From NCBI GenBank assembly GCA_905147135.1, contig LR990058.1:13987349-14051348 (forward strand): a stretch of 64,000 nucleotides of DNA, in the 5' to 3' direction. The first letter of the stretch is position 1. Every line of letters starts with the position of its first letter. Below the pieces are notes generated by a model. The model made no database searches and was not told the origin of the DNA. It saw only the letters and a list, made by a program, of their open reading frames with translations. A program made the position numbers and the translations under genes. This stretch comes from Blastobasis lacticolella. Lineage: Eukaryota; Arthropoda; Insecta; Lepidoptera; Blastobasidae. This document shows positions 1 through 51,316 of this stretch, in pieces.

Positions 1-1049
1 TAGGTAAATTATGCTGAGGGGGTCCAGTTGCACTGGTAGCCGCGACACGTTTAAACAATGCCACTGGGAATAAAGTAAGGAAAATTGTAGGCATGTACAT
101 TTTTATTTTTTATGTTTTTTTAACATTATTTTTAGTTTTTATGTATTTTGTTCTTATTTAGTTCAGTTTTTTTTGTACCAAATTGTCGTGTCGTGGTGTC
201 TTTGTGCAAAAAAGGTTTTGTTTCTTTCAAATGTTCGTCACAAAAGCCATAACTCCCAAAGGACTGCGGATATATTTAAAATAGTATTGTTTTGCTGCGG
301 TATCCCGTAAAAATTTCGCCCTTGTCGCTAGAGCAATCACCATTTCTGTCAAAAATCCGCTTTTGCTTAAACTTAATTTTTAATATACTAGCTTCTTTCT
401 ACTTCGTCCGCAAAATATCCGGACCCGTTACATTGAAATTCGGATTAAATACTAACCTATGTACTATTCTAGACTATACGCTACAGTTCTACAAAATGTC
501 ATCAAAATACATTCAGGCGCTGTCGTATTTGCCAACGGTCTTACAACGGGTGGCTCTCAGGTGTCCCATTGGTCGGGTGATGTCCGCGTTACGACCACAG
601 TCGCACGACTCTTGCCAATTAGTACAGCGCCTCAGCAGTTTTTGTGTGAAGAAGTACCAAATATCCTAACAAACTTCAAAATTATAGTGGGTAGGAGTGG
701 GATTTTCTTGTAAATAGCAATAGATTAGACTTCTATTGAGTTACAGGTCGCAGAACAGATTTTTTGAGCCGATTCGAAATGCCACGCTCCCCGCGACCGC
801 TACATGAATTCCAATCGGAGCCGTTTTGAATAATTAATTAATCACGGGCAGGTTGTAAATCGTTTAGTTATCCCGGGCCCAGCCCCCATTCGGTAATCCC
901 TTTTAAATCTCAGATTATCTGGTTAATATTTCATTCGCACAGTCATAATTCAACACGTAGGAGTCAGCGGTGGTATTTAGCTTTACGCGGATATTTTGGA
1001 CCATTGAATGCTTGACATGTGAAAATAATTGGGTTAATTATTGAATTTA
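1..1049. other. AT-rich DNA with no recognisable gene
   Basis: Overlapping open frames of 84 and 125 codons at 292-713 show no motif I recognise and no splice or start context that would favour them. The stretch near 160-215 (GTCGTGTCGTGGTGTC) resembles the 3' end of the LINE tail seen in reverse at 12619-12730, so the first 250 bases may be an old LINE 3' untranslated region. The rest is unassigned. Confidence 0.4.
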
Positions 1050-1605
1050 TAGCGCGAAAACTCGCCATCGATAACCACCGATAACCATGTCGATGTTCGT
1101 CCTTACACCTTGGAACAGAAATGGTTAAGGTGCAGGTGAGTAAGGTTACCAGTGCTGTATGGGGTGAGGATTTTCGGAACGATAGCTTAGCCAGTGGAGG
1201 GACGTTTGCCTTTTTGCTCTCAGAGAAACGTATTATAGATTTGGGCAACGCATTGGCGATCTCCCTGGTATTTGTTTAAAATAAAACTCGCGTTCTTTAC
1301 ACATATTGTTATATTCAACGGGACTCACACGCGACGTACCTTTTCGATTTGTTTTCCCGACGTTTTGGCAGGGGTACACCCACCGTGGTGAAGTGAAGGC
1401 TGCTGTGACCGGACCGGACAGGACCGCACCGGACAGGTGATAATTGCAATGATGGGCGGGTAGACTCCCTACCTTCACATGGATGTAGGTAAGCGTGCCA
1501 ACCTTACATGGAATTGTCAGTTTGTTGTTGTAATTTCACGGCATACCCAGGGGTAAACCGGTGTTGCTAATGTCTAGGCAGCGGTAGTGACTTTCCATCA
1601 GGTCT
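1050..1605 (+). mobile_element. Old LINE 3'-end fragments (LINE-G plus Jockey-E scrap), interrupted
   Basis: Bases 1130-1275 align by eye with 53105-53240: GTGAGTAAGGTTACCAGTGC, a G-rich stretch, then GGGCAACGCATTGGCGAT. The expected continuation, GGTGTTGCTAATGTCTA, appears only at about 1558-1605, so roughly 280 bp were inserted between the two parts. The first part (1055-1130) resembles the Jockey-E segment at 18135-18185 (CGCCATCGA, then CCTTACACCTTGGA). The inserted block has a GGACCGGACAGGACCG run and is not identified. No coding capacity remains. Confidence 0.5.
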
Positions 1606-1671
1606 CTACCGCTGGTTCTGTAAATCTGCCATGATGCAATGATACAGCCATAGCGGTGGGAAGTTAGAGCC

Positions 1672-1770
1672 AAGTCCTATAATCGCACCGCTCGCCATCG
1701 ACATAGAGTTAATCCTCAACCCTTTGAAAATAATTGGCCTCGAACTGTGTTCCAAAGGGACTGTTGTAAA
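1672..1770 (+). mobile_element. Jockey-E LINE fragment
   Basis: Matches the upstream part of the Jockey-E copy at 18118-18210: CGCACCGCTCGCCATCGACA, then CCTTTGAAAATAATTGG, then CGAACTGTGTTCC. It is a decayed scrap of LINE coding sequence with no intact frame. Confidence 0.5.
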
Positions 1771-1776
1771 ACATTC

Positions 1777-3369
1777 TTACGCCTGAATACTCGAATATCT
1801 CTTAATTTTAAGAGCTCATTACATATCATGCTATTCCTTTTGAATGTCAAAGATTTGAAAGAGCAAAATCTTTAAGCAGCCCTTTAAGTTAAGAAACATT
1901 CCAGCATTGAGGCGTTCATGTTATAACAAAAAAAGTAAAAAAACAAAGCTATTCGCTGTCACTCTTTTCTTCAGGCTCAAAATAAGAAAATAAGGAGCAA
2001 ATTCTAATATAATCTCTACGGCTTAATACACAGAATATTTGATGATGGCAAACGTCAGCCACAACAGGTTACACAAATGATCTCAACAAATGAATCAGAA
2101 AAAAATATTCTGAAACCCCAGCTAAGCCGCGATTTTCTCAAAGAGATTAAGCATAATGTCTTTCATACTTTTTTCAGTGGTGACAGTGATTTGAGGTTTC
2201 CCGTACAAGGACACGTAAAAAGCTGGCGCGGGGACACACAGGTCGGTAGAATGACGGATGTTAGTAATTATTCGCACGGTTTGATATAGACATAGACATA
2301 TATTTATTGGTAAAATACTTTACAGGTCAGTATCGTATTCAAACGTATATTGCGCTTAGATACATTTTTACAGTAAATAATCCATTAACAATTTGTACAA
2401 TAACATATTAGGTATACCTACGCCTAATCTTCGCAAAAAGTGTCTGACATTTACAGAAACGAGGTACTTTTTCCCTTGTTAAACCTGTTCCTGATAGACT
2501 AGGAATTGAAAGTAAGCTGCAATGCTGAATAAAAATCCCTTATTAACAAAACTCAAAGCAATGGGATACTAGTACATAACAGTTTTATCTACCTCTATAA
2601 TTTAATATGGGATAATATGACAATAGTTCATTAATCGAAACGTTAAGTACTGTGCTAGTTCTTAACAACTTCCGAACAAACCGTCAACTCTCAAAAAAAC
2701 CCGGCCCTCCCAATAAATATCTCGTACCTACATTTATCGAACATCGTAACTTAGTTCCGCGAACATCGTCCATCAATTGGCGTGATAAAACGTTACCAAC
2801 AAAGCTGTAATAAAAAAGTGATAACAATAAAAGCACTCGCGCTCGCTCAACGAAGAGTCAGTATGCCCCATGCGGAGCCAGCGGTATTTTTAATAATCCC
2901 CAAAGCTTTATATGGCTCAACTTTTCACAGCGTGATGATTGATGACGGAAAAAGTTAGATTACAAAAATGTCATACGGCGCTAAATCCACGATAGTATCT
3001 TGTGATAGCGCCCCGGGCCTCCAAGGGCTGTAATGTGAAATTTTTGATGTCCACCCCTCGCACATTTGCGGGCTAAAATCGAAAAAGTTTCCCCGTTAAT
3101 GATGCTTAGTCGCCGCACCAGGAATTGTGAATCAGATTCCCGGAATTATAAATTGGAGATTTGTCTTTGTAAGCACTAAAGTACTGAGGCTGTGGAGATT
3201 ACTTTTTATGTGTTACTCAAATAAGTCTTAAGGGAGGCTTGCACCAAATTCTTAAACGAATTTAAGCTGATACTTAAATAAAAAACTGTTATCAATTTTG
3301 ATTTTTTTGTAATTAAATTACATAGCGACAATAAGCGTCATACATCATGTTTGCGAACTCCACGCTATT
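1777..3369. other. AT-rich intergenic DNA, mostly unassigned
   Basis: No exon or repeat is clear. At 2283-2315 a GACATAGACATA run followed by TATTTATTGG looks like the reverse of a LINE 3' tail ending in repeated TATGTC. A 70-codon frame at 2077-2289 has no recognisable motif and is probably chance. Confidence 0.4.
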
Positions 3370-3722
3370 TAAATGAAAATGCTGCGGTGAATGTGTGGCG
3401 TTACGCAACTTGATCGAGTACGTAACGAGTACATCCGTGGCAGCCTTGGCGTAAGAGATATCGCGGATAAGATCGAAGAGGCACGGCTGCGCTGGTTCGG
3501 TCGTTGGATTCGTGGGAAATAGGTGTCTAAACCTGCCTGTATCAGGAAAGAGGTCCCGCGGGCGACCTAAGAAGCGATAGATTGACATCGCCGAGTTGGA
3601 CACGAGTGTTAACGGCTTACGAGAAGATGCCAAAGATCGGGCAAAGTGGAGGAAACTAAGCAGGAAAGTGGACCCTGGTAGTAGCCGGGATTGACCGCTC
3701 GTAAGATGATGATTCAGCCTAA
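3370..3722 (+). pseudogene. RTE-type LINE, C-terminal region of the ORF, decayed
   Basis: Translating the plus strand in shifting frames gives blocks typical of the C-terminus of Lepidoptera RTE-type reverse transcriptases: VGNRCLNLPVSGKRSRGRPKKR, read in two pieces around a stop, then REDAKDRAKWRKLSRKVDPG. The same blocks occur at 42731-42905 and 58435-58790. Stops and frameshifts break the frame. The 176-codon minus-strand frame over this interval is antisense to it and not a gene. Confidence 0.8.
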
Positions 3723-6708
3723 TACAACAAAATATTAAATTTTTCGTGACGAAAATTAAAATTAAAAACCGTTCAACTCGAGGCGAGCGGTTCAAAAATA
3801 GAATCCCTGGTCTGCAACAAAAAACTGTAACGTAATTGGTCAATATTCACTAGTAGTAGACACTGCGGTATTTAGGACGAGAGCATCTTCCGTAGTTTCC
3901 TGAACGCTGTCCAAGATTGATTCGTCAATAGACCTCTTTCTCGAAATATGGTACGTTTGGACTACCCATGGTACTACTGACCTGATTACGACAACTCTTT
4001 TACAAACTGGAAACTACAGTCGTCCCGAGTACAAGTATAATAGAGTATTTTATACGTCGATTATTTCAGTCGTCCCGTGACCATGATGCATGCAACTATG
4101 TCGAAATATCGGGCTACTCGTAAGCAAGGGTACGCGGTAGGAAACCCGGAACATACCCTTAAAATGTGTAATAATAACCGCGATAGTTTAAAACATTATA
4201 TTTTATACTACAGCGAAAAAACAGAAACCCGAGGGAGATTCGTAGGTGAATAAAGTTTCGAAAGCACCCGGGAGGTCATCGCGCCGATGACCGCTAGTCA
4301 AAGAGAATTTTCTTCTCAATCCAAATATTGATCAGCTGTCCAAAAAAAATCCGGGATAGCAGAGCTTCCAAAAATCTTTTAATCTTCCATCCTTTGATCT
4401 TGTCATTTACGGACTCCAATTAATAAAGACTGTCATTCTGATCTTGTCCCAATTATTTTATTTATACCTTTCTTTTAAGCACAGAAAACAGTGAAGCTTC
4501 ATTAATTGGTACGCCTTGAGAGGTTGATTCAAAAATTTATTTAGCAATCCGCCCGTTGTCGTGTCAGTATATCAGCTTGTTATTTTTGATGACCAACCTA
4601 CTGATTTTATTATTTACTAGTGGACTCGTTCGCGTGCACCTACTTTACCCCTACGCTTTTTTACTTGCTTATAAAATAAACTTTCCTCTTGAAACACTCT
4701 ATTTATTATTAAAAACCGCATTATAATCCTTTAAGCAGTTTAAAAGATCTAAGCGTACGTAGAGGCAGACAGCGGGAAGCGACTTTGTTTTATACTACGT
4801 ATACATTTTTTAGAAAAAGAAATAGTCTTACATAAGTAATACACATACCCAAAACATTTTAACTGACTTACAGTTCCACTTTTAATATTAAAAAAGTCTA
4901 ATAATTTTTAATATTTAAAAATTCTAATAATTTTTATTATTAAACCGTCATTTTATTAAAATGAAATACAACAAACACAAATCTGAACACGACATAAGAC
5001 CATATTTAGGCGTCGGTTGCTTATTTACACAAACATTTAGCCAAAATTATGCATGGCCATATCATACAGAAATAAATAACCCTTTAACGATGTCATACAA
5101 GACACAGTAAAAATCGAGTCATCAATACTTGACATAACATGTACGAACAGTCCGTCGTAAAATTCTTACCTCGGCAACTACTCTACCAAATGAGCTGAAG
5201 TTCCTTTCAGACATCTTAAACTAGGTATTTACGACGCTATAGCAAGGGACAATATCTTGCAAGACCGAAGAACTAGTCCGTGGCTAATTGGACCGGTTTA
5301 GTGCGTTTTTATTGGTCCCTGTCGAGTTACGACCGCCCAACAGGTCACGGGAACGCGTTCACTAAATTAGTTGACAGACTCTGACTGTTTTTCGACGCCC
5401 CTAGATTCGGATTGCAAGTGTTGTGGGATTACGGATTCATTATGTGATAAGCTCGGAAGGCATTGGTGGGATATTAACATATTATTTTTATTTCGTCGTT
5501 ATTTAGGATAATAGGCATGATTTTCAGCGATAGTGCGACAACGCCCTGGTGTGGTTATTTTGGGTCTACGTGGCTGATTAGGGTGTCAATAAACGCGTCT
5601 CGACGAGGGCTACAAAATGTAAAAAAAAAATTTAAAAAAAATTTATCCAAGAATTGTTTTTCACTCGGTTTCGGTCAGAAAAAAATTCATATCTCGGAAG
5701 TATCCTCATAACCTCGGGTCTTCAAGTCAAGAGTGAAAAGGTATCTTCTAGGCACGCATGCTACATCTTCGATCTCATCGTCGTATTCCATCAGGTTAAG
5801 GTTAGAGATGAAATTAAAGATAAAAAATGTAAACACACAACTGTCATTGTCAAAGAAACTATCAAGGGGTATGAAACATTTTTTATCGAAAGTATTTATT
5901 TACAAAATGGTTATGCATCACGCACACTTTTCAGAGTGCTTTACAATGGCTGGTAAACTTTCGAAAACCATACAAATCGATTTACCCCCATTTATTCAAT
6001 TGATATAAAATGTAATGAGTAACTCCGAAACTATTAGTCCTTGAATACTAGTTAGAAAACTTCAATATAAGAAAGATTTGGCTGCCATTTTGAAATTAGT
6101 CTTATTTTATGCATTATTATTTGAGAAAAGCAGTATATATGTCTCGGCGTCGGTCAATCCTTAACTTTCCTAGCCTTTGCAATAATGTACGGTAACAACG
6201 AGCCAAATGTTTAGAATTTCTTACCATTGCCAGTGTCATAAACGAAAACTACACATATTTTGTCAGCACAAATACGAAACAAACAAACATGGTTCCCAAT
6301 TTAGTTCAGCAATATATTTATAAATTTTCATATGACTTTATTTTAAATGATCCACCATTTGGGTTATTTTTTTTATAGTAGCAACACATTTTTTATCTTT
6401 AATTCGATCTCATACCTTAGTTGCGAACAAATCTTAGAGAAAAAATTGTATCTACTTGAGGATCAAATGCAAGATTTTTGACAATAATAATAAAAAAGTA
6501 AGCACTGTGTGTGGATGTAGACAGTTTTTCGGGTCACAACTTTACAAGCATGATGGATGAGTCGCCGGTGTTGTACAAACTGATACTTCCTACTAGTTGA
6601 CATATCTCATAGGTACCTGGTATTTTAATTTAGATAAAATATACTGTGGTATTGACATATAAAATCGAAATATCGTGGCGTACATAGTAGGGAGGATTGA
6701 TACAGAAG
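3723..6708. other. About 3 kb with no recognisable gene
   Basis: Very AT-rich. Bases 4860-4960 carry an imperfect tandem of about 28 bp built on TCTAATAATTTTTA. A segment at 4755-4800 (GGCAGACAGCGGGAAGCGAC, then TTTTATACTACGTA) recurs in diverged form near 18830-18860, 41760-41800 and 47950-47985, so it is a dispersed repeat of unknown type. Overlapping frames at 5517-6008 are low-complexity and probably chance. Confidence 0.4.
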
Positions 6709-7210
6709 CGTCGGTGGCCGAGCGGGTAGTATATCCGACTCGAAAGCAAGAGGTACCGGGTACGAATTCCGCTGCGGCCATGTATCAATGACTTTTTTTT
6801 CATTTCCTGTAATGTTATAAATTGATGCAAGAAAGAGATTACATACATACATACTCCTTTCTGAGTTATGTAGGTACATTAGCTGTGGTGTGTGGTGCCG
6901 CCACCTCAAAGAATAGCACCACCCCATCTCTTCCCGTGGGTGTCGTAAGAGGCGACTAAGGGACAAATCCGAAAGATGGGCAGCAGCATCTTTCTGGGTA
7001 GATTTACATCAACTGCACTGCGATCTCCAACCCGCCTGCCAAGCGTGGAGATTATGGCAATGACCTCCCCTTTCGTGGGAGAGGCCCGAAGTCCTGCAGT
7101 GGACTGTTATGGGCTGTGATGATGATTAGCTGAATACTAACCGATGCTCTTACGGTGAGGGAAAACATCGTGATGAAACTGAACATTCAGGCGACTGAAT
7201 GCGTCAAAAG
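6709..7210 (+). mobile_element. SINE-F, tRNA-derived, interrupted by a SINE-D2 copy
   Basis: The head is tRNA-like: GTCGGTGGCCGAGCGGGTAG resembles box A of a class II tRNA, and GGTACCGGGTACGAATTCC is a damaged box B. The body continues with ATGACT...TGAGTTATGTA and, after the insertion, CTAACCGATGCTCTTACGG and CATTCAGGCGACTGAATG. Related copies are at 11063-11351, 33955-34243, 47570-47825, 53395-53685 and 56190-56515. The body is split by a younger element at 6886-7124. Transcription by RNA polymerase III is expected for the class but not shown here. Confidence 0.75.
6886..7124 (+). mobile_element. SINE-D2 copy nested in SINE-F
   Basis: A 239-bp element starting near TGGTGCCGCCACCTC and ending in a GATGATGAT-type tail. 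It is flanked by the 8-bp direct repeat ATTAGCTG (6878-6885 and 7125-7132), which marks its insertion into the SINE-F copy. It is nearly identical to 47996-48229. Its 3' half (from CTGCGATCTCCAACCCGCC) is shared with SINE-D1. The TGATGA tail suggests it uses an RTE-type LINE machinery, as RTE fragments here end the same way. Confidence 0.75.
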
Positions 7211-7570
7211 TGACATTAAGCATACACCTGGAATTTGTGGAAGTACATTTACATATAGCTTGTACGTTGGGAACTAAAATATTTTTAAATGAACAGGTTT
7301 ACGCGTTTGTGGAATAATACCAATATATAAAAAAAAATAACGTTCTCATAAGTAAGAAACGTAGGTTAGGGTAGGTAACTCTTTGCAGTTTACATGGATC
7401 ACTTACCTGAAAGAAATGATAAATAATTTATTAGAACTGGTGTGTTTATACAATTATTTGGAATTTTACCTTAGAATATAAAATAGTTCTCTAGTAAACT
7501 TTTAGTATGGTGATCATTAAAACTTTGAGATTCATAAGTCTTTGTCTTAATTTCTTAAACAATAAGTTTA

Positions 7571-7886
7571 ATCATCATCATCATCATCATATCAGCTAAA
7601 AGACGCCCACTGCTGGGCATAAGCCTACCCTATAAGATCACCCGCATCACAAACGCCGGTCCTGTGCCTACCGCATCCAGCTGGTACCTGCAATCTTTAC
7701 CAGTTCGTCGGTCCACGTTGTGGGGGGCCTACCCACGCTGCGTCTTGCGGTACTTGGTCCCCACTCGAGAATTTTACTGCCCCATCGGCCACCTGTTCTT
7801 CGAGCTATGTGCCCTGCCCACTGCCACTTTAGCTTGGCAATCCTTACGGCTGTGTCGGTGACCTTGGTTCGCTTGCGGAGCTCCTC
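7571..7886 (-). mobile_element. 5'-truncated RTE LINE with 12-bp target duplication
   Basis: The reverse strand translates to KLKWQWAGHIARRTGGRWG followed by SVGRPPTTWTDELVKIAG and then stops. This is the well-known C-terminal block of Lepidoptera RTE endonuclease-reverse transcriptases. The element ends in a TGATGATGATGA tail (7571-7590 on the plus strand reads as ATCATCATC). The direct repeat ACAATAAGTTTA flanks it (7559-7570 and 7887-7898). Only about 316 bp of the 3' end was copied; it is a dead fragment. Confidence 0.85.
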
Positions 7887-8238
7887 ACAATAAGTTTATT
7901 CATAGGGAAATATGTATGTCTGTTGGTTTTGAAACGCAATCGTAATTATTATTGTATGCATAAGCTCGACCTATTCTAAAACATCCCGTAACAATTAATT
8001 TCATGTACGAAATGCAGCACATTAACCCACCCACTACCGGTATAAAATGAGCACTCAAAATGAAAATGAACAAAACCTAAAAATGTAATACATCTAGCGG
8101 CAATACTAAAGGCTAGTAAGTAAGACTAACTAACAATCACTATGGATGCGCTTACAATTCGGAGACGGTCCAAAGTCTAACCCTATCTAGACTAGATTTA
8201 GGCTGGCCTTCCGTACTGTAGCATGTGCTCGGGCAGGC

Positions 8239-11359: not shown

Positions 11360-12317
11360 AGGATAAAATAATAACCATCCGCATATGATAGGGTGTAAAG
11401 ACTGGGCAGAAGAAGCTGGGATTCGGAATTGCAAACTTCTGAAAATGTCTGCTTGGATGACGACGATGAATCTGAGTGAGAATCATACATCAGCTTAAAA
11501 TTTTATCAATTTTACAAAATTCTAAGTGTGTATCCTAATTTTAGGGCTACCACATAAGTTTCAGGTCCAATTCCATACGTTTAAAATGATTGTAAATATA
11601 TCTCCATAGGAATTACAAGGCAAATGTTTAGCTATAAAGCGCCATATTTGCAAAGGAATGGCCGCTTACAGTCTAAGTAGTGGAAGAGATGACCCTCTTT
11701 ATTGGGTACTTGACTTTTTAGGGTACCTTATATATCCCTAATAATTCTCACGCCCGGGAAAATTTCATTCTATTTATAGATTATGGTCATCCTTATTTTG
11801 GTTGTAAAAGCGGACCTCGAGGAAAAATCCGGTTTTGTTTTTCCTAGTTTTTCCGGCTGTAGGAAGTACAAAGAACTGGACGGAAATTTATGATAGATTT
11901 CTTTTAACAGTCTCATCTTGTTTACTCCTCGGGTATGAGGGATGGACAGAGGCATGACCTTATGGTACAAAAAAACGTACAAAAAACTGCATAGGGGCGA
12001 AGTCTGGGGTGCTGTCTGCTTTGTTTTCCACTGAATGGTTCAAAAAGAAACTAATTATTCAGTGCTATTACTATTAATTTCTATGTATAGCAATGGATGA
12101 TCTTTAGGTATAGCAATATATCTCAATATGAATAGTGCGAAGCTGAGGCAGATCTCTACTAATTATTGTTTAAAAACTAAAGGTCGGAGTCTCTCTGAAG
12201 GATAAAATTCGAAACGAAGTAAACAAACAGAGAACCAAGTCACATCTAGAAAAGGATAACTTGGGAAGTGGTATCTAAACGTCAAAAGAGCCAAATTTAA
12301 CCGAAACTGCGCTTAAA
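11360..12317. other. No recognisable gene
   Basis: Short frames at 11271-11486 and 11770-11982 have no motif, and the first overlaps the SINE. No repeat in the window matches this stretch. Confidence 0.4.
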
Positions 12318-12510
12318 ATGAGGAGTTTTCCAGTAGGTATTGATAGTTGGTTTCAAAAAGCATCAACAGACGCCGCTCGTACAATTTTGGTAATCTTTTT
12401 ATAATTTGTATGATGGTGGCAGTGATTTCATGCAGCCAACTAATAATAAACTTAAAAATAAAATGTTTATTAATATAAACATTACCGTTAAATGTTGAAC
12501 GAAGTGTAAA

Positions 12511-12554
12511 AAGAAATATTTATAGAAGTTTGCCAACTTCTATAAATATTTCTT
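12511..12554. repeat. Perfect 20-bp hairpin unique to MITE-A copy 1
   Basis: AAGAAATATTTATAGAAGTT is followed by the loop TGCC and its exact reverse complement. The other two MITE-A copies have only one arm at this place, followed directly by GGCACTATG. The second arm is therefore a local inverted duplication acquired by this copy. Confidence 0.85.
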
Positions 12555-12618
12555 GGCACTATGTTCCATTATTATTACAATCTCTAAAATGGTTGAAAAC
12601 TATTGACCAATACAATAA

Positions 12619-12730
12619 TAGAAAGAAAGAAAGAAAGAAAATATTTATTACAAAGGACGCCACGACATGATAATTTACATTTAACACAAAAAAAAAGTAC
12701 ACAAAACACGGAGACAATTATAGGGTTCCC
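12619..12730 (-). mobile_element. Truncated LINE 3' tail nested in MITE-A
   Basis: On the minus strand it reads GTCGTGGCGTCCTTTGTAAT, AAATATT and then a repeated TTTC tail (plus strand GAAAGAAAGAAAG). It interrupts the MITE-A sequence between CAATACAATA and ATATTATCCAATAC, which are contiguous in copy 3 (ACAATATTATCC). Repeated AATA/ATA at the joints could be a short target duplication. The LINE clade is not identifiable from 110 bp. Confidence 0.65.
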
Positions 12731-12879
12731 ATATTATCCAATACAACGTAACCAGTGTTCATATCCTGTTTGCTAAGAACCTATTTCAAGCGATTATCAA
12801 TTACCAAAATTGTCGGGGCGCCATCTAGTGAGTGGTTAGGAATGCTTTAGCTAGCTATTGGAAAACTGCTTATTATCGA

Positions 12880-13755
12880 GCTTATTGGAAAGTCTTTGTA
12901 AACGCAATTCAATTAAGTTAAACATTGTTTGTTTTGGTAACGAACTTTTTATACTTAAAACGATTAGTATATGTCAATTTGACTTTGACAGTTCTCTTGC
13001 CATCTCACCTTATCTGTGTGCTACAACGTTCGATGAATAAAATCATTGAATCTCTGTAAATTCAACCAATCTTTTATTATTTCACCTAAAACCCTTCAGA
13101 GCTGAAGTAGTTAGTAGTGGACTGGCCATATTTGCCGAAGAACCGCATGGGTAGGTAAACGAGCTCGTGAGAGGAGCGAGCGAAGTGCAAATGCCGTCCG
13201 GCAAAGCCTTAAGTCGTCTAATTTACCAATTTATCGATTGAGTTGTAATTGGATCGCAATTCCAGCTAAATGGCAGTTTCTGGTATTACAAATAAAACAT
13301 TACAAAGGTATTACAAAGTCAAAATATTTCCATTAAAACTTGGATACACTACACAGTATTTAAAGACTCCTCTCTCAACTACAATAACGATGTAACTTGA
13401 AAAATGAAAAAAGCTAGCAATTCAAATGTAGCAACTTCCACCCTCAGATATCTCTGCGTCCCTTTAACTTTTTAATGAGTTTAACAAGGAAACTGTAGAG
13501 AGTCATTATCAGGCACGGCTTAGAATTAAGCTGGCTCGGCACGATCGCGAATGCCAGTTGCGTATTGTTAAGTCTTTCCTCGTCTACTATTAGATTACCA
13601 CCTCCAGAAGTAAAATATTTTTTTTTACATTTTCAGTACTACTGACAAATTTTAATGAGCACACCCACCTGATGATTAATGGAAAGTGGAGTTGCCCATA
13701 ACTAAGAGTCACGTGCTTAGGTTTCTTAAAACAAAATTGTTGAACCGCATGGTTG
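12880..13755. other. Mostly unassigned; possible RTE scrap
   Basis: Bases 13110-13210 read GGACTGGCCATATTTGCCGAAGAACC, quoted here only in part (GGACTGGCCATATTTGCCG). This is reminiscent of the RTE block W-GHI-RRT, but it is too decayed to assign. Nothing else is visible. Confidence 0.3.
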
Positions 13756-18819: not shown

Positions 18820-19480
18820 CAAAGGGACAGATGGCGGAAAGCGACTATATTTTATACTATGTACTATAGATTATGTCAGAGGTCAGTCAAATGCAGACTA
18901 AACGGTCGATTGCATTGTATAGAAGTAAGGTTTTGATGACAGTAATGGCCGACGGTGGACATAAGGCATCATTGTAGCAGATAACCGAAGAATCAGAAAC
19001 ATTTGTTATACACAAGATGGTGCAAAACACTCCAGATGAAAACAAAATGTAACGACGTAAAAGCGTATACGTAGACAATTTACTTTACTTTTACCTTTTT
19101 GTTTAGTTTGCAGAGACGCTGTATTTTGCTATAATTGCCTTCTTTATACGTTATTTGCGCGGCAAATACGCTGCAAATTGGATCATTAAGAGCTTACGCT
19201 GCCTGCCCGAACTTGGTATAGAAAATGTCTCCTCCTAATTAAGGCAAATTATTCTCTCAATTGTTATATTCTCAATGATTATAGTAAAAGAGTGTTTATC
19301 ATTCTTGCAATTTCCAATCAAATTTGGAATACTTACGGGTTTGAAAGAGTGAACATTACATTCGTACAAATCCGGGAAAATTCTGTTGCAAGTCTTTTTT
19401 TATTAGTCTAGCCAGACTCAATATTTTGCACTGCTCTATGTCCAAAACATTTGCCTTGACAATCGCTTTAAACGTATGGA
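18820..19480. other. Unassigned intergenic DNA
   Basis: It begins with a diverged copy of the GACAG...GGAAAGCGACTATATTTTATACTATGTA dispersed segment and the GTCAAATGCAGACTAAACGG motif shared with 15945. No gene or complete repeat is visible. Confidence 0.4.
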
Positions 19481-19898
19481 ATGAGCAGTTTTCCAAAAGG
19501 TATCTAAAGCATTCCTAACCACTCACTAGATGGCGCCCCGAATATTTTGTAAAAGATAATCGCTTGAAATAGGTTCTTAGCAAACAGAATATATAAACAC
19601 TGGGTACGTTGTGTTGGATAATATTGTATTTGTCAATAGTTTTCAACCATTTTAGAGGTTGTAATAATAATGGAACATAGTGCCAACTTCTATAAATATT
19701 TCTTATTACATTTTGATCAACCTTTAACAGTTATGTTTATATTAATAAACATTTTATTTTTAAGTTTAGTATTAGTTGGCTGCATGAAATCACTGCCACC
19801 ATCATACAGATTAAAAAAAGATTACTAAAATTGTAGGAGCGCCACCTATTGATGCTTTTTGAAACCAACTATCAATACCTACTGGAAAACTCCTCATT
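19481..19898 (-). mobile_element. MITE-A copy 2
   Basis: A 418-bp copy in reverse relative to copies 1 and 3. Ends are ATGAGCAGTTTTCC and, on the right, GGAAAACTCCTCAT. TGGA precedes the left end (19477-19480) and follows the right end, which could be a 4-bp target duplication, but the other copies do not show an equivalent. The conserved interior includes CCAACTTCTATAAATATTTC and CAGCCAACTAATACTAAAC in reverse. Confidence 0.85.
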
Positions 19899-39935: not shown

Positions 39936-39943
39936 GTCGTACC

Positions 39944-39974
39944 CACAGAAATGAAACAAAAACAGAATCCATGT
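39944..39974 (+). repeat. Left 31-bp terminal inverted repeat
   Basis: Starts CACAGAAATGAAAC and ends AGAATCCATGT. Identical in reverse to 40755-40785 with no mismatch in 31. The 8 bp before it (GTCGTACC) are repeated after the right TIR. Confidence 0.95.
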
Positions 39975-40110
39975 TACCTTAAAGAGATGCGGTGCATGCA
40001 AGGTGTGACAATCTCCTTTGTTGTACATGACATACACTCATCGGGTCTTACAACGCGCCGCCATTTCGTAGCGTTCGGACATATTTTTCCTCGACGAAAA
40101 ATATTTTAAA

Positions 40111-40187
40111 ATGCCGTCATGTGTAGTGAAATCGTGTAAAAGTTACTGGAAAAAATGTAACAAGGCAGGAGGAATTACCTACCACGC
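40111..40187 (+). CDS. THAP zinc-finger first exon of a P-like transposase
   Basis: 25 codons plus 2 nt, starting after AAATATTTTAAA. The peptide begins MPSCVVKSCKSYWKK and ends GGITYH, and the exon stops at GTAAGT (40188) in phase 2. The THAP fold is a C-x2-4-C-x35-50-C-x2-H zinc site; here the first pair is Cys4 and Cys9 (x4). MPxC....C at the very N-terminus followed by a basic stretch and I-T-(F/Y)-H is the standard THAP opening. The second half (Cys, His, AVPTIF box) would lie in a following exon, which I cannot find in the element. The most likely reason is internal deletion; a host THAP gene is the alternative, but the TIRs around it argue for a transposon. Confidence 0.7.
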
Positions 40188-40754
40188 GTAAGTAATTATG
40201 ATTCGTGCTACTTTTTTTATTAATGTTTTATTTACTTTTGTGCAAATTTCGAACAAAAGTACAACGATGTGGCTACCTGTTTTTCGGGAAAATTCCCATA
40301 AAGTGGGGAATTCTTTATTAAATTTGTGACTCAAATCAGGTTCCGAATTTTTATTACCTAAGTCGCTTCATCCATATTTAAGGCGAGGACGGCTCCATTT
40401 CATCGAAACGTATGATTTTTAAACGTGTAGATTGATGCAGACGTATAATGATTCGATAGCTAAATAACTAGATTACTATAATGACTGAACACGTCTACAA
40501 AATTTCATTGATTTTTATAGCGCTATATTGAAAATAAGATCAAACTTCATTTGTCAACATATTTCATTACTTAAGAATTTTTAAATAAATAATTATAATC
40601 AGAAATTAATAATTTTTATTTATTTATTATTGTAAAGTTGTATTGCTAACGTAATACATAAAGAGGGCAAAATGGATCATGTATATGGACACCCTAAAAT
40701 TACGCAGACATATAAAATGGCGGCCATTTCTAAGCTTCCCTCATGACTTAAGAC

Positions 40755-40785
40755 ACATGGATTCTGTTTTTGTTTCATTTCTGTG
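40755..40785 (-). repeat. Right 31-bp terminal inverted repeat
   Basis: Begins ACATGGATTCTG and ends CATTTCTGTG. Exact reverse complement of the left TIR. Followed by the target duplication GTCGTACC. Confidence 0.95.
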
Positions 40786-41089
40786 GTCGTACCTAATTCA
40801 AGTAATGGTGTATAAATCAGCAATTCTGGCCCCTCTTAAACATACAATACAACTTATATAACCTAGCCGACTGATGTCGGAAAACCATGGACGAAGATAT
40901 AAGCTACTGAATCAATTTTAATGAAACGAAGCTACTTTAATCGGTTTATTATTAATGAAATTTAGCCAGTTTAATCTTAAGAAACCATATCGAAATCTGC
41001 CTAGACGTTAAAGAGATATAAGACCATAAACATATACATAGACACGTGTCAAACTTATAACATCTTATATTATCTCTGGTTCGGCTATA

Positions 41090-41505
41090 ATGAGGAGTTT
41101 TCCAATAGGTATTGATAGTTGGTTTCAAAAAGCATCAATAGATGGCGCCCCTACAATTAAGGTAATCTTTTTTTAATCTGTATGATGGTTGCAGTGATTT
41201 TATGCAGCCAACTAATACTAACCTTAAAAATAAAATGTTTATTAATATAACCATAACTGTTAAAGGTTAAACGAAGTGTAAAAAGAAATATTTATAGAAG
41301 TTGGCACTATGTTCCATTATTATTACAACCTCTAAAATGGTTGAAAACTTTTGACAAACACAATATTATCCAATACAACGTACCCAGTGTTATATCCTGT
41401 TTTCTAAAAACCTATTTCAAGCGATTATCAATTACCAAAATTGTTAGGGCGCCATCTAGTGAGTGATTAGGAATGCTTTAGATACCTATTGGAAAACTGC
41501 TCATT
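41090..41505 (+). mobile_element. MITE-A copy 3, uninterrupted
   Basis: 416 bp from ATGAGGAGTTTTCCAATAGG to GGAAAACTGCTCATT. Both arms contain AGATGGCGCCC followed by TACAATT..GGTAAT / TAACAATT..GGTAAT in reverse. It is the best reference for the family, lacking both the nested LINE tail and the extra hairpin of copy 1. About 300 bp from the P-like element but with unrelated termini. Confidence 0.85.
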
Positions 41506-41531
41506 GCATAAACAGTTCCCCTCCTCCATCT

Positions 41532-47569: not shown

Positions 47570-47825
47570 CTGTAGTTGAATGCTAACCGGTTCTCTTACG
47601 ATGTGGAAAAACACCGTGATGAAACCTGCAAATTCAGGCGACTGAATGTGTAACCATGATCCAATTTGGTCAAGTTCTCCTGGTAGCAGGGTCACGGAGG
47701 TTTAATTGTCGCTGCTCCACTGTAATTACCAGATCTGCCAAATCGTGGATCACGGTCAATGCGGACCCCGGGCCCTCGTGCGCGTGAGCACAACCGGGAT
47801 ATTGACGCCAAGATGATTATTCATT
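47570..47825 (+). mobile_element. SINE-F body, headless
   Basis: GTTGAATGCTAACCGGTTCT, CACCGTGATGAAACCTGCAA, ATTCAGGCGACTGAATGTG, CACTGTAATTACCAGATCTG, AGCACAACCGGGATATTGAC, GCCAAGATGATTATT. The tRNA-like head is absent. The copy adjoins the RTE fragment, whose end overlaps it closely (47545-47570). Confidence 0.8.
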
Positions 47826-48240: not shown

Positions 48241-48614
48241 GATTTTTCACCCAGTCAGTATCTGTTGCCGGAATTTCTTGGACATCGGGAGAAACCCTCG
48301 AAGATAATATTACGCAGGTATAGTTTGTGATAATAAGATTAACTCTAATGAAAGTTTTGAAATTATCTACTTACGCGCTTATCACTGAACATTTTTAAAG
48401 GAAATTTTTTTTTTTTTTTTTTAAATTAATTGATTTTAGAAACACACAGAATACACAAAAACTTATTAACATGGTCCCTTGGAAAGGTATAATGTCGTCG
48501 ACGAACTAGTCCATAAATATATTTTTTTAATTAATATTTTAACACTTACTATAATAATCGAATATGTATGTTAGAAACGTGTATCGGTAATTTTTACATT
48601 TCTTTTTTCCACAG
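48241..48614 (+). other. Presumed intron end before the LRR exon
   Basis: Contains a 22-T run (48407-48428) followed by an A-rich stretch that looks like a reversed LINE tail, and ends in TTTTTACATTTCTTTTTTCC-ACAG, a strong polypyrimidine tract and acceptor. In the LRR frame a TAG at 48572 closes the upstream reading frame and there is no ATG after it. Confidence 0.6.
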
Positions 48615-51316
48615 ATGTGACAGCTGTTGTCCTTTGGGCGGGATCTGCCTCGGCTGTAACCAGTTGTTTAATCACCGACAAGCAAGAGAATATATGCAAC
48701 TACACCGTCACATGCGAATATTTTGCGGGGAGCGCCATGCCACTTCATTGCAACGGCGACCCATACGTTACCTTCATCATGACTAAATCCACAATGCCTA
48801 CGCTTACTTATGGGTTCTTCGGCTCTACAAACTTCGATTCCAGAGTAAGAGTTTTCAAAGCCAGAGATAACTCGTGGGACGGAATAGAAGCGATGACATT
48901 CAAATTCTATCCGAAAACGCAACACATTGATATATCTGGAAACGGTATCAAATTTATAGAGAATGAGGCATTTAGGTATTTAACATCACTTGAGACATTA
49001 AATATATCTCATAATAGTATTCGTACGTTGAACCTGAAAGCTTTTCTTATAAACGACTATCGTGGAATAGATTTACAAGTGCTTGACCTCTCATTTAATA
49101 CAATAAACGAATTGCGTGGTGAACTTTTTAGTTACATACCCAGTTTGAAAATTTTGTATTTAAATAATAATATGATTTCAACAATCGGAGAGGAATGCTT
49201 AAGTATCACCAGAGATATGACAAATTTATACTTGCAACACAACCGTATTAATGCCCTAAATATGACTTTGATAAATTTAAAATCATTGAAAGAGCTAGAT
49301 GTCTCTTTCAATTCACTGACGAAATTAGTTGATTATGAGATATCTCGTCTAGTTGAATTGGAAATATTCAATGTGTCATATAACCAAATCGTAAGCATTG
49401 ATATACATTCATTTAAACAGTCGCCTAACCTACAATATTTAGATCTCAAATACAATAATATTAACTCAACCATTGAAAACAACTTATTTGTAAATAACAA
49501 AAATCTTACATATTTGGATCTAAGCCACAATCATATAATTCATTTACAAGACAACGTTTTTAAAGACCATTCTTTAAATTACATTAATTTGGAAGATAAT
49601 AAATTACAGGGATCAATAACGAATACGACATTATCTGGTTTCGGAAATATAGAAACATTGAATTTATTTAATCAAAGCATTACAGATATAAAAAACAATG
49701 CATTTACTAATCTTGATAAATTGACATATTTAAATCTGAGCCACAATATCATAGCAGATGTAGAAATATCCGGCTTTAAAAATCAAAATACAATAAACGT
49801 GTTAGACATGTCATGGAATGCCCTTTCAAGTATATATTTTTTACAAGGTTGCTTAGCAAATTTAACCGAGTTATTCTTAAATAATAACAATCTTACAATT
49901 ATACTAAAAAACGCGTTTGTTGAACAAAGTCAGTTGCAAAAATTGGACATATCTTACAATAAAATAACTGTTATTGATGAAAATGCATTGCCTGTATATA
50001 ATTTGCAGTATTTGAAAATTTTGAATAACCCAGTTACTGGGGTTCTAAAAGAAAATGTTGTTAGTCATGCAAATTATTTAAGGTATTTAGATTTAAGTAA
50101 CTTTAAACTAAACAAGGTCGATGCGAATGCTATCACTGATTTGCCTCGTGCCGCGCGATTGAATATTTCACACAACGAGATAGAATTTATCCACCCAAAC
50201 AATTTTAAAAATATGAGTAACCTCTACAGTTTCGATGTTTCATATAATAAGCTCTCTATCTTAGATTTGGATAATGTGAGTTTGAGTACCTTACAAGCGA
50301 TTTATTTAAATAACAATAATTTTACAACAATTTCTGAATCATTACTCAACATAAACAGTTTGTTACATGTAGATCTTTCATATAATGAATTAAAAGATTT
50401 GTCTGGGTCCGACTTCACGCAGTGGACGAATGTACATAGTTTATATTTATCGCATAATCAAATCACATATTTTGGAGATTCAATTAGTTCACATTTGTCT
50501 GAATTGATATTTCTTGATTTGTCTTCCAATTTAATAACAGATATTAATCTCAGTTACTCTAAGTCGATCGTTTATGTTGATTTGAGTATTAATAAACTAA
50601 ATAAATTGAATTACACTTTATTTAATAATCTTGATAAATTAGTGTCATTAAATCTCAGCAATAACAATATTTTAGAGTTAAGCCCTGGATCTTTTAAAAA
50701 TGTGCAAATTTTGAAGATTCTCGATTTGTCCCATAATCATGTGTCAGAATTAAGATTTGGTACTTTCAAGGGGTTGAACAAGACTGAAGTATTAGATCTA
50801 TCTGGCAATGACATATCAAGTATCGATGTCAATGTGTTCCACGATTGCTTTGAACTTAAGAAGCTAATTTTAGACTATAACCTATTAAAAACTTTGGATG
50901 TTGAAGGGTTAATATTAGCAGTTCCCAAGTTGACCAGTCTTAGCTTAGGTGGTAATCGCATTTCGTGTAGTGAAATTGTTCTGAATGTGAGGAAAATTAA
51001 TAGTTCTACGAGTAGAGTAGTCGAAGTTACGTCTATAGATAAGGTGTATCACGAGGACAATGTGCATGGCATCAGGTGTGGAGACGTTGTTCGCACAACT
51101 CAGAAACCTGAAGCTGAACAATCTGGAGAAGCATCAGCCTCAACAGGTTTAATTATTGGATGCACAATTATTGTTCTCTTTGTCTTTGCTGGGGTTGCTT
51201 TTTACTTCTATAAACGTAAAACGGGTTTGGGATATTCTAATAGAGAAACAGTGAGACAATCGCGGAGTTCTCTTAACCTGAACGGTTCAGACTTTCAAGA
51301 AGATTTGTTAGGTTAA
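48615..51316 (+). CDS. Leucine-rich repeat type I membrane protein, large 3' exon
   Basis: 899 residues are open from 48617 to the TAA at 51314, entered through the acceptor CAG|AT GTG (phase 1). Numbered from the Val codon at 48617, residues 1-13 (VTAVVLWAGSASA) are the hydrophobic core and an A-S-A cleavage site of a signal peptide whose start is in a missing exon. Residues 17-45 hold four Cys (17, 27, 33, 45), an N-terminal cap. From about residue 105 to 785 I count about 29 LRRs of 23-25 residues (LxxLxLSxNxIxxI, e.g. LQVLDLSFN, LKILDLSHN). Two Cys follow (ISC, IRC), then a polar stalk, a helix at 844-865 (GLIIGCTIIVLFVFAGVAF), and a 34-residue basic and Ser-rich tail ending EDLLG. There is no TIR domain, so it is not a Toll receptor. 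Chaoptin-like adhesion or pattern-recognition receptors are possible relatives; the family cannot be fixed without a search. Confidence 0.93.

What the first reader, a model, noticed from the sequence alone, without database searches (positions are those of the whole stretch)
39936..40793. P-superfamily transposon with perfect 31-bp TIRs, 8-bp target duplication and a THAP exon
Seen directly: two exact 31-bp inverted termini beginning CA, flanked by exact GTCGTACC copies; inside, an ATG at element position 168 opening MPSC-x4-C-K-S and closing at a GTAAGT donor. These are the features of the Drosophila P element (31-bp TIRs, 8-bp duplication, N-terminal THAP). P elements are best known from Diptera. 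A member in a presumed lepidopteran, with exact TIRs and duplication, would mean recent movement and probably a full-length partner elsewhere. At 842 bp it is an internal-deletion type.
Basis: partly seen in the sequence, partly recalled or inferred. Interest (0 to 1): 0.88.

Follow-up and report, generated by a model that had tools for sequence, protein, structure and literature searches.

The report
Deleted P-element copy, ZAD-carrying transposon family
The window holds a short, internally deleted "jumping gene" of the P-element type, one of many copies in this genome, and a full-length relative is predicted to make a cutting enzyme with an extra zinc domain (ZAD) that was not seen in the other P-type enzymes compared here.

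Summary
Window 39944-40785 is an 842-bp element with perfect 31-bp TIRs and an exact 8-bp duplication (GTCGTACC). It belongs to a large P-superfamily family: the TIR matches 296 + 287 places in the genome at up to 3 mismatches (control 0 + 0). All 18 two-ended copies examined have exact 8-bp duplications. Two have related empty sites.

A transposase-bearing copy exists (C9:5811418-5819432, 8,015 bp, GCAATAGT). Its predicted gene joins two THAP exons, a 48-nt exon, a ZAD (zf-AD) exon, two small related exons and a 799-codon exon with P-transposase domains and the DDE triad. The window copy keeps blocks 1-417, 6369-6485 and 7688-8015 of it, with only THAP exon 1, so it is non-autonomous.

P elements in Lepidoptera are already in print. 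The unexpected part is the THAP-ZAD-P gene: zf-AD is in none of the 16 THAP-annotated proteins among 120 listed homologues, nor in 25 other P loci held. A Parnassius apollo protein shares THAP, ZAD and coil. ZAD-domain dN/dS is 0.32. Splicing is inferred, with no transcript evidence.

The parts
39936..39943 (.). left target-site duplication GTCGTACC
39944..39974 (+). left 31-bp terminal inverted repeat
   Evidence: 583 matches of its first 30 bases genome-wide at <=3 mismatches
40057..40066 (+). left subterminal inverted repeat GCCGCCATTT (element 114-123)
   Evidence: same place in 18 of 18 copies examined
40111..40187 (+). THAP exon 1 (77 nt, MPSCVVKSCKSYWKKCNKAGGITYH-A), followed by a GTAAGT donor; no partner exon remains in this copy
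40358..40360 (.). older deletion junction (full-length position 417 to 6369; bases 415-417 align to both sides); its exact 26-nt sequence is in 11 of 16 fetched two-ended copies
40474..40486 (.). younger deletion junction (full-length 6485 to 7688), not present in L009, with about 13 bp that align to neither side
40487..40785 (+). right-end segment of the element (full-length 7688-8015; 86% to the C9 copy, 89% to L009 with one 30-nt gap)
40715..40724 (-). right subterminal inverted repeat (62-71 from the right end)
   Evidence: exact at this place in 16 of 18 copies; one shifted to 73, one with 1 mismatch
40755..40785 (-). right 31-bp terminal inverted repeat
40786..40793 (.). right target-site duplication GTCGTACC
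41088..41506 (+). interspersed repeat that is a related EMPTY site for another copy of the family (L027): single TATGTTCC, no insert
19480..19898 (-). second copy of the same interspersed repeat, also an empty site for L027

Best explanation
The window element is a non-autonomous, internally deleted member of a P-superfamily cut-and-paste transposon family. A full-length copy (8.0 kb) is predicted to encode a transposase with an N-terminal THAP domain, a ZAD zinc domain, a coiled coil and the P-type HTH, RNase H and GTP-binding-insertion core. The enzyme supplied by such copies would bind the ends through THAP, pair and cut them, and insert the element with an 8-bp stagger, mobilising deleted copies that keep both ends. 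Shown here: ends, duplications, empty sites for two copies, copy number, open reading frames, domain matches, DDE residues, deletion joints. Inferred: splicing of the exons, expression, mobility in trans, and that the ZAD acts as a dimerisation module helping to pair the two ends.
For: 31-bp TIR and 8-bp duplication. 92 matches of the 842 bp in the genome, only 40 of 1,430 candidates scored. TIR 30-mer: 296 + 287 matches at <=3 mismatches, control 0 + 0. Duplications exact in 18 of 18 two-ended copies examined (16 fetched, window, C9); left subterminal repeat in all 18. Related empty sites for L027 (single TATGTTCC) and L011 (the 8 site bases differ by 1-2). Full copy C9:5811418-5819432 with 31/31 TIRs and GCAATAGT. 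Gene model of 7 exons, six GT/AG introns, 1,069 aa. THAP 8.6e-11, zf-AD 2e-6 (2.9e-8 for the open frame holding the exon), Tnp_P_element, RNaseH N and C, GBD, THAP9_C. PDB 6p5a Drosophila P transposase 1.1e-29, with D230, D303, E531, D339 and D444 aligned to D, D, E, D, D (residue roles from PMC8230255, passages). The window copy equals three blocks of the full copy (97%, 92% and 86% identity). ZAD exon: 5 near-identical places, all open, 97-100%; ZAD-domain dN/dS 0.32, bootstrap 95% 0.15-0.60, against a diverged relative on C30 (whole exon 0.49, 0.28-0.87); THAP-ZAD-coil protein P0124 in Parnassius apollo, 48% over 253 and 60% over 126 residues.
Against: No transcript data, so the exon joins are predictions. 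zf-AD in the full model scores 28.4 bits against a cut-off of 28, which is marginal (34.3 bits for the open frame alone). No PDB sequence matched the ZAD exon at E<=10. Of four near-identical copies of the last exon (L032-L035), two show the 799-aa frame (L033, L034) and two do not (L032 395 aa, L035 354 aa). Only one copy was read end to end. 4 of 20 fetched loci showed only one TIR in the piece held, and 30 of the 100 exact TIRs listed found no exact partner. The window site has no paralogous empty site, so its own movement rests on the duplication alone. The tail of the ZAD exon shows no constraint (dN/dS 1.4).
Confidence: 0.9

Rival explanations
1. The element is a P element, but the ZAD exon in the full copies is a passenger (a trapped host exon or a nested gene), not part of the transposase.
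For: zf-AD is in none of the 16 THAP-annotated proteins among the 120 listed homologues, nor in the 25 other P loci held. Exons are predicted only. The stretch behind the domain evolves without visible constraint (dN/dS 1.4).
Against: The exon is phase 0 on both sides with GT/AG borders and has no ATG ahead of its first cysteines; the TAG of its acceptor closes the frame upstream. It is open in 5 of 5 near-identical places, its domain shows dN/dS 0.32, and Parnassius apollo P0124 has THAP, ZAD and the same coil in one annotated protein.
Confidence: 0.17
2. The TIRs and 8-bp duplication belong to another superfamily with 8-bp duplications (hAT), and the THAP resemblance is chance.
For: hAT elements also make 8-bp duplications (recalled knowledge).
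Against: The copy with the same TIRs encodes the P-transposase domains and matches the Drosophila P structure 6p5a. No hAT family was among the Pfam matches of the model at E<=0.001.
Confidence: 0.01
3. The THAP exon belongs to a conserved host gene or a domesticated P derivative, and the TIRs are incidental.
For: THAP host genes exist in insects (PMC9810180, passages).
Against: A THAP query of this family gives 150 scored hits of 543 candidates across the genome. The exon-1 stretch sits between TIRs with 0-1 mismatches in all 16 two-ended copies fetched and in the C9 copy. The window flanks have no other full match. No other exon of the gene model is left in the window copy.
Confidence: 0.01

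Closest known systems
Drosophila melanogaster P element (review PMC7776569, passages seen)
   Same: 31-bp TIRs, subterminal (11-bp) inverted repeats, 8-bp duplications, THAP transposase with DDE RNase H core, small non-autonomous copies
   Different: 8.0 kb against 2.9 kb; ZAD domain and two related small exons added; THAP split over two exons here (that it is not split in Drosophila P is recalled); different TIR sequence (recalled)
Anopheles gambiae P subfamilies and P-MITEs (PMC1562414, passages seen)
   Same: 27-31 bp TIRs, 8-bp duplications, masters of 4,178-7,545 bp with related deleted families of 205-2,450 bp in the same genome
   Different: genes of three putative exons (one with an additional intron) and 876-895 aa for three reference elements; the words zinc, ZAD and zf-AD do not occur in that paper's main text
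Zebrafish Pdre2 / THAP9 (PMC10983969 and PMC7776569, passages seen)
   Same: 8-bp duplications, subterminal repeats, internally deleted copies
   Different: 13-bp TIRs; no ZAD mentioned in the passages seen
P superfamily in Helicoverpa armigera (PMC7764229, passages seen)
   Same: P-type DNA transposons in a lepidopteran; 15 reference sequences, 12 full-length, 6,103 copies
   Different: counts only in the passages seen; no domain architecture
Parnassius apollo protein P0124
   Same: THAP, ZAD and coiled coil in one annotated protein, 48-60% identity in the ZAD and coil parts
   Different: two ZADs and one THAP, ends before the RNase H core; looks like two merged copies (inference)
Drosophila CG6689 and CG10431, THAP plus ZAD-ZNF host genes (PMC9810180, passages seen)
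   Same: THAP and ZAD in one protein; [quoted passage not shown]
   Different: host zinc-finger genes; a transposase part is not mentioned in the passages seen

Membership tests
P superfamily of DNA transposons | 8-bp target-site duplication | tested here: met
   18 of 18 two-ended copies examined
P superfamily of DNA transposons | terminal inverted repeats, 31 bp in D. melanogaster; start CA (recalled) | tested here: met
   31 bp, start CA; 0 mismatches between ends in 14 of 18 copies, 1 in 4
P superfamily of DNA transposons | subterminal inverted repeats | tested here: met
   GCCGCCATTT at 114 from left in 18 of 18; right side exact at 62 in 16 of 18, one shifted, one with 1 mismatch
P superfamily of DNA transposons | N-terminal THAP domain | tested here: met
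   gene model of the C9 copy 8.6e-11; the window copy keeps only its first exon, which alone gives no match
P superfamily of DNA transposons | transposase core with HTH, RNase H and GTP-binding insertion | tested here: met
   PF12017, PF21787, PF21788, PF21789, PF22824 over cut-off in the C9 copy
P superfamily of DNA transposons | DDE catalytic triad | tested here: met
   D230, D303, E531 of 6p5a align with D, D, E
P superfamily of DNA transposons | GTP-dependent excision and integration | not testable with these tools
   needs biochemistry
P-derived non-autonomous element (deletion type / P-MITE) | both ends kept, coding interior lost, repeated, same duplication length | tested here: met
   three blocks of the 8,015-bp copy; 35 end pairs of 1,451-3,156 bp among the 100 exact TIRs listed; no second 842-bp copy was seen
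ZAD (zf-AD) domain in the transposase | PF07776 match with four cysteines (CxxC ... CxxC) | tested here: met
   34.3 bits for the open frame, 28.4 in the full model, cut-off 28; the four cysteines also stand in L062, L063 and P0124
ZAD (zf-AD) domain in the transposase | spliced into the transposase mRNA | not testable with these tools
   no transcripts held
hAT superfamily | hAT transposase (hATC dimerisation domain, recalled) | tested here: not met
   only P-type, THAP and zf-AD families matched the model at E<=0.001

The most novel reading that the evidence does not exclude
A lineage of P transposons captured a ZAD dimerisation domain between THAP and the coiled coil and kept it under selection, so that its transposase is a THAP-ZAD-P chimera with a second means of pairing transposon ends. 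The lineage predates the split between this host and Parnassius, or has crossed between lepidopterans. Such elements are a possible source of host genes that join THAP and ZAD.
Probability: 0.6. Interest if true: 0.62.

Novelty: new variant of a known kind. Interest (0 to 1): 0.5.

Why it matters
P transposase is a model for THAP binding and DDE chemistry. A natural version with a ZAD between THAP and the coiled coil would give a direct test of how end pairing is organised, and shows a host-type regulatory domain inside a mobile element. The family is little diverged, in many copies, with at least one intact-looking coding copy and many deleted derivatives in one chromosome-scale genome, so repression and cross-mobilisation of P elements could be studied outside flies.

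Tried and rejected
A related empty site for the window copy itself: the joined flanks match only their own two halves plus 7 short weak places, so empty sites were shown for L027 and L011 instead. A viral carrier for horizontal transfer: 600 stretches matched a pattern in viral contigs, none a relative by tblastn. Phage collection: no match. Rfam over the window at gathering scores: nothing. PDB for the ZAD exon: nothing up to E 10. THAP search by a short protein: 3 hits among 3 candidates, held small by the length limit. dN/dS of the ZAD exon among the near-identical copies: too few changes (0-2 synonymous, 0-4 other per pair). Downstream transposase at the C30 relative: none in the 2.2 kb fetched, and 2848501-2849999 was not read. 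Four window open frames given to Pfam beside the LRR frame: no family.

Full report
Observation. Inverted arms are 100% complementary; with the duplication set aside the TIRs are 31 bp at 39944-39974 and 40755-40785, and GTCGTACC flanks both ends. The TIR 30-mer occurs twice in the window and in none of 100 shuffles. The ATG at 40111 opens MPSCVVKSCKSYWKKCNKAGGITYH-A up to the GTAAGT at 40188. By itself this exon gives no Pfam match.

The family. The window is C19:13987349-14051348 of a 577-Mb, 45-contig genome. The 842 bp gave 92 matches, with only 40 of 1,430 candidates scored. The TIR 30-mer at up to 3 mismatches has 296 forward and 287 reverse matches, with 0 and 0 for the reversed control. 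Of the first 100 exact TIRs listed, 70 form 35 inward pairs spanning 1,451-3,156 bp and 30 stay unpaired in that exact-only list. Of the 20, 16 show both ends and 4 show one in the piece held. These 16, the window copy and the C9 copy have exact 8-bp duplications in 18 of 18 cases. TIR mismatches are 0 in 14 and 1 in 4. A subterminal repeat GCCGCCATTT stands 114 bp from the left end in all 18 and 62 bp from the right end in 16.

Movement. Two fetched copies lie inside other repeats, which gives related empty sites. The joined flanks of L027 align through the join, with a single TATGTTCC, to window 41088-41506, window 19480-19898 and L015. The joined flanks of L011 do so with L019, L011 and window 47573-47820, with 1-2 differences inside the 8 bp at the three sites shown. 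The window flanks have no second full match. First 400 bp of 18 copies, 153 pairs: 94.75-100% identity, median 97.75%.

The transposase-bearing copy. PF21787 gives 103 matches in the genome. Four of these places (L032-L035) lie 2.3-3.2 kb downstream of THAP exon 2 of this family. L032, L034 and L035 are 98.4-99.8% identical to L033 over 3.4 kb; L033 and L034 show a 799-aa open frame, L032 and L035 shorter ones. A fifth, L048, aligns in two pieces only. Reading C9:5811250-5819500 in contiguous pieces shows a copy at 5811418-5819432, 8,015 bp, ends 31/31 complementary and 1 mismatch from the window TIR, GCAATAGT on both sides. The predicted gene has seven exons with GT/AG introns and 1,069 codons: THAP exon 1, THAP exon 2, a 48-nt exon, a 351-nt ZAD exon, two related small exons and the 799-codon exon. 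Pfam finds THAP, zf-AD, Tnp_P_element, RNaseH N and C, the GTP-binding insertion and THAP9_C. The Drosophila P transposase structure matches at 1.1e-29. D230, D303 and E531, with D339 and D444, align to identical residues; their roles are from PMC8230255 (passages).

How the window copy arose. It equals positions 1-417, 6369-6485 and 7688-8015 of the full structure at 97%, 92% and 86% identity. The first joint is older: its exact 26 nt are in 11 of the 16 fetched two-ended copies. The second is not in L009, the nearest copy compared, and carries about 13 bp aligning to neither side, as expected of gap repair with filler (inference). L009 differs at two of the first 530 positions and has one 30-nt gap and 6 mismatches in the right segment. 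With only THAP exon 1 left the window copy cannot make a transposase or a whole THAP domain.

ZAD. The exon is found in this family's loci (L032-L035, L048, a decayed one in L023) and gives no significant match in the 25 other P loci held, of 103 PF21787 matches and within about 3.4 kb each. In the genome it has 76 matches of 83 candidates: six in 128-130-codon open frames with 89-100% identity, many with stops or partial, a relative at 68% on C30 beside a THAP exon, and matches at 32-41% in mostly long open frames, five of them in a cluster on C28, which I take for host ZAD genes. Between the C9 copy and the C30 relative the ZAD domain has dN/dS 0.32 (bootstrap 0.15-0.60, 1 of 1,000 at or above 1), the whole exon 0.49 (0.28-0.87, 5 of 1,000) and the tail 1.4; against the C10 copy the exon gives 0.49. 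The last exon of L033 against L035 has dN/dS 0.15 over 787 codons, one codon dropped. The only database match to residues 84-260 of the model at E<=1 is P0124 of Parnassius apollo, one of 205 candidates, with two ZADs, one THAP and the same coil. For the 799-aa exon 176 homologues were found and the best 120 listed; 16 of these carry THAP and none zf-AD. Many of the rest come from contigs of a few kb, so their lack of ZAD says little. The Chilo suppressalis fragment P0004 (79%) appears to begin inside the small exons, so whether Chilo has the ZAD is open. PMC9810180 (passages) states that ZAD binds zinc by four cysteines and can drive dimerisation and nuclear localisation; that this happens in the transposase is my inference.

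Known or new. P elements with deleted derivatives and 8-bp duplications are known from Drosophila, Anopheles (PMC1562414) and zebrafish, and P-superfamily copies are tabulated for Helicoverpa armigera (PMC7764229). I found no paper describing a ZAD in a P transposase. One search listed 15 of 55 papers holding at least three of its four terms, with 'ZAD domain' in none of the 15; two searches returned none; two searches returned only the cucoid paper PMC9810180, which describes THAP-ZAD host genes. That library lacks most subscription journals, so the claim is limited to it.

Verdict. The window element itself is a new member of a known kind; its family is a new variant because of the ZAD, if the predicted splicing is right.

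Noticed in passing
window 48575-51316 (+): Open frame of 913 codons without a stop, full of leucine-rich repeats (LRR_8 3.1e-96), with a hydrophobic stretch near its C-terminus; probably a host LRR membrane protein.
   Followed up: partly
L029-L031, L036-L047, L049-L058: The same genome holds other P-superfamily lineages; open frames reach 844 aa in these loci and 852 aa elsewhere. They are about 24-50% identical to this transposase over matched pieces of 100 residues or more, with no significant ZAD match in the stretches held.
   Followed up: partly
genome-wide: 34 of the 103 PF21787 rows have an open frame of exactly 101 codons matching about positions 6-104 of the family: apparently another short, multiplied P-derived family. 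Their sequences were not compared.
   Followed up: no
L059 about 1000-1700: A GC-rich tandem array (variants of ggggtacggcagg) fills much of the predicted intron after THAP exon 2 and is kept in part in deleted copies L024, L027 and L028.
   Followed up: no
C28:1045046-1099547: Five ZAD-like matches in open frames of 266-591 codons (33-41% to the transposon ZAD): perhaps a cluster of host ZAD genes.
   Followed up: no
window 41088-41506, 19480-19898, and 12317-12883 in two pieces: Copies of an interspersed repeat about 420 bp long, the first beginning about 300 bp from the P element.
   Followed up: partly
insertion sites of 18 copies: The 8-bp targets look weakly palindromic (T at position 3 in 10 of 18, A at position 6 in 9 of 18), and the second base outside on either side is A or T in 17 of 18. 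Small sample, not tested against background.
   Followed up: partly
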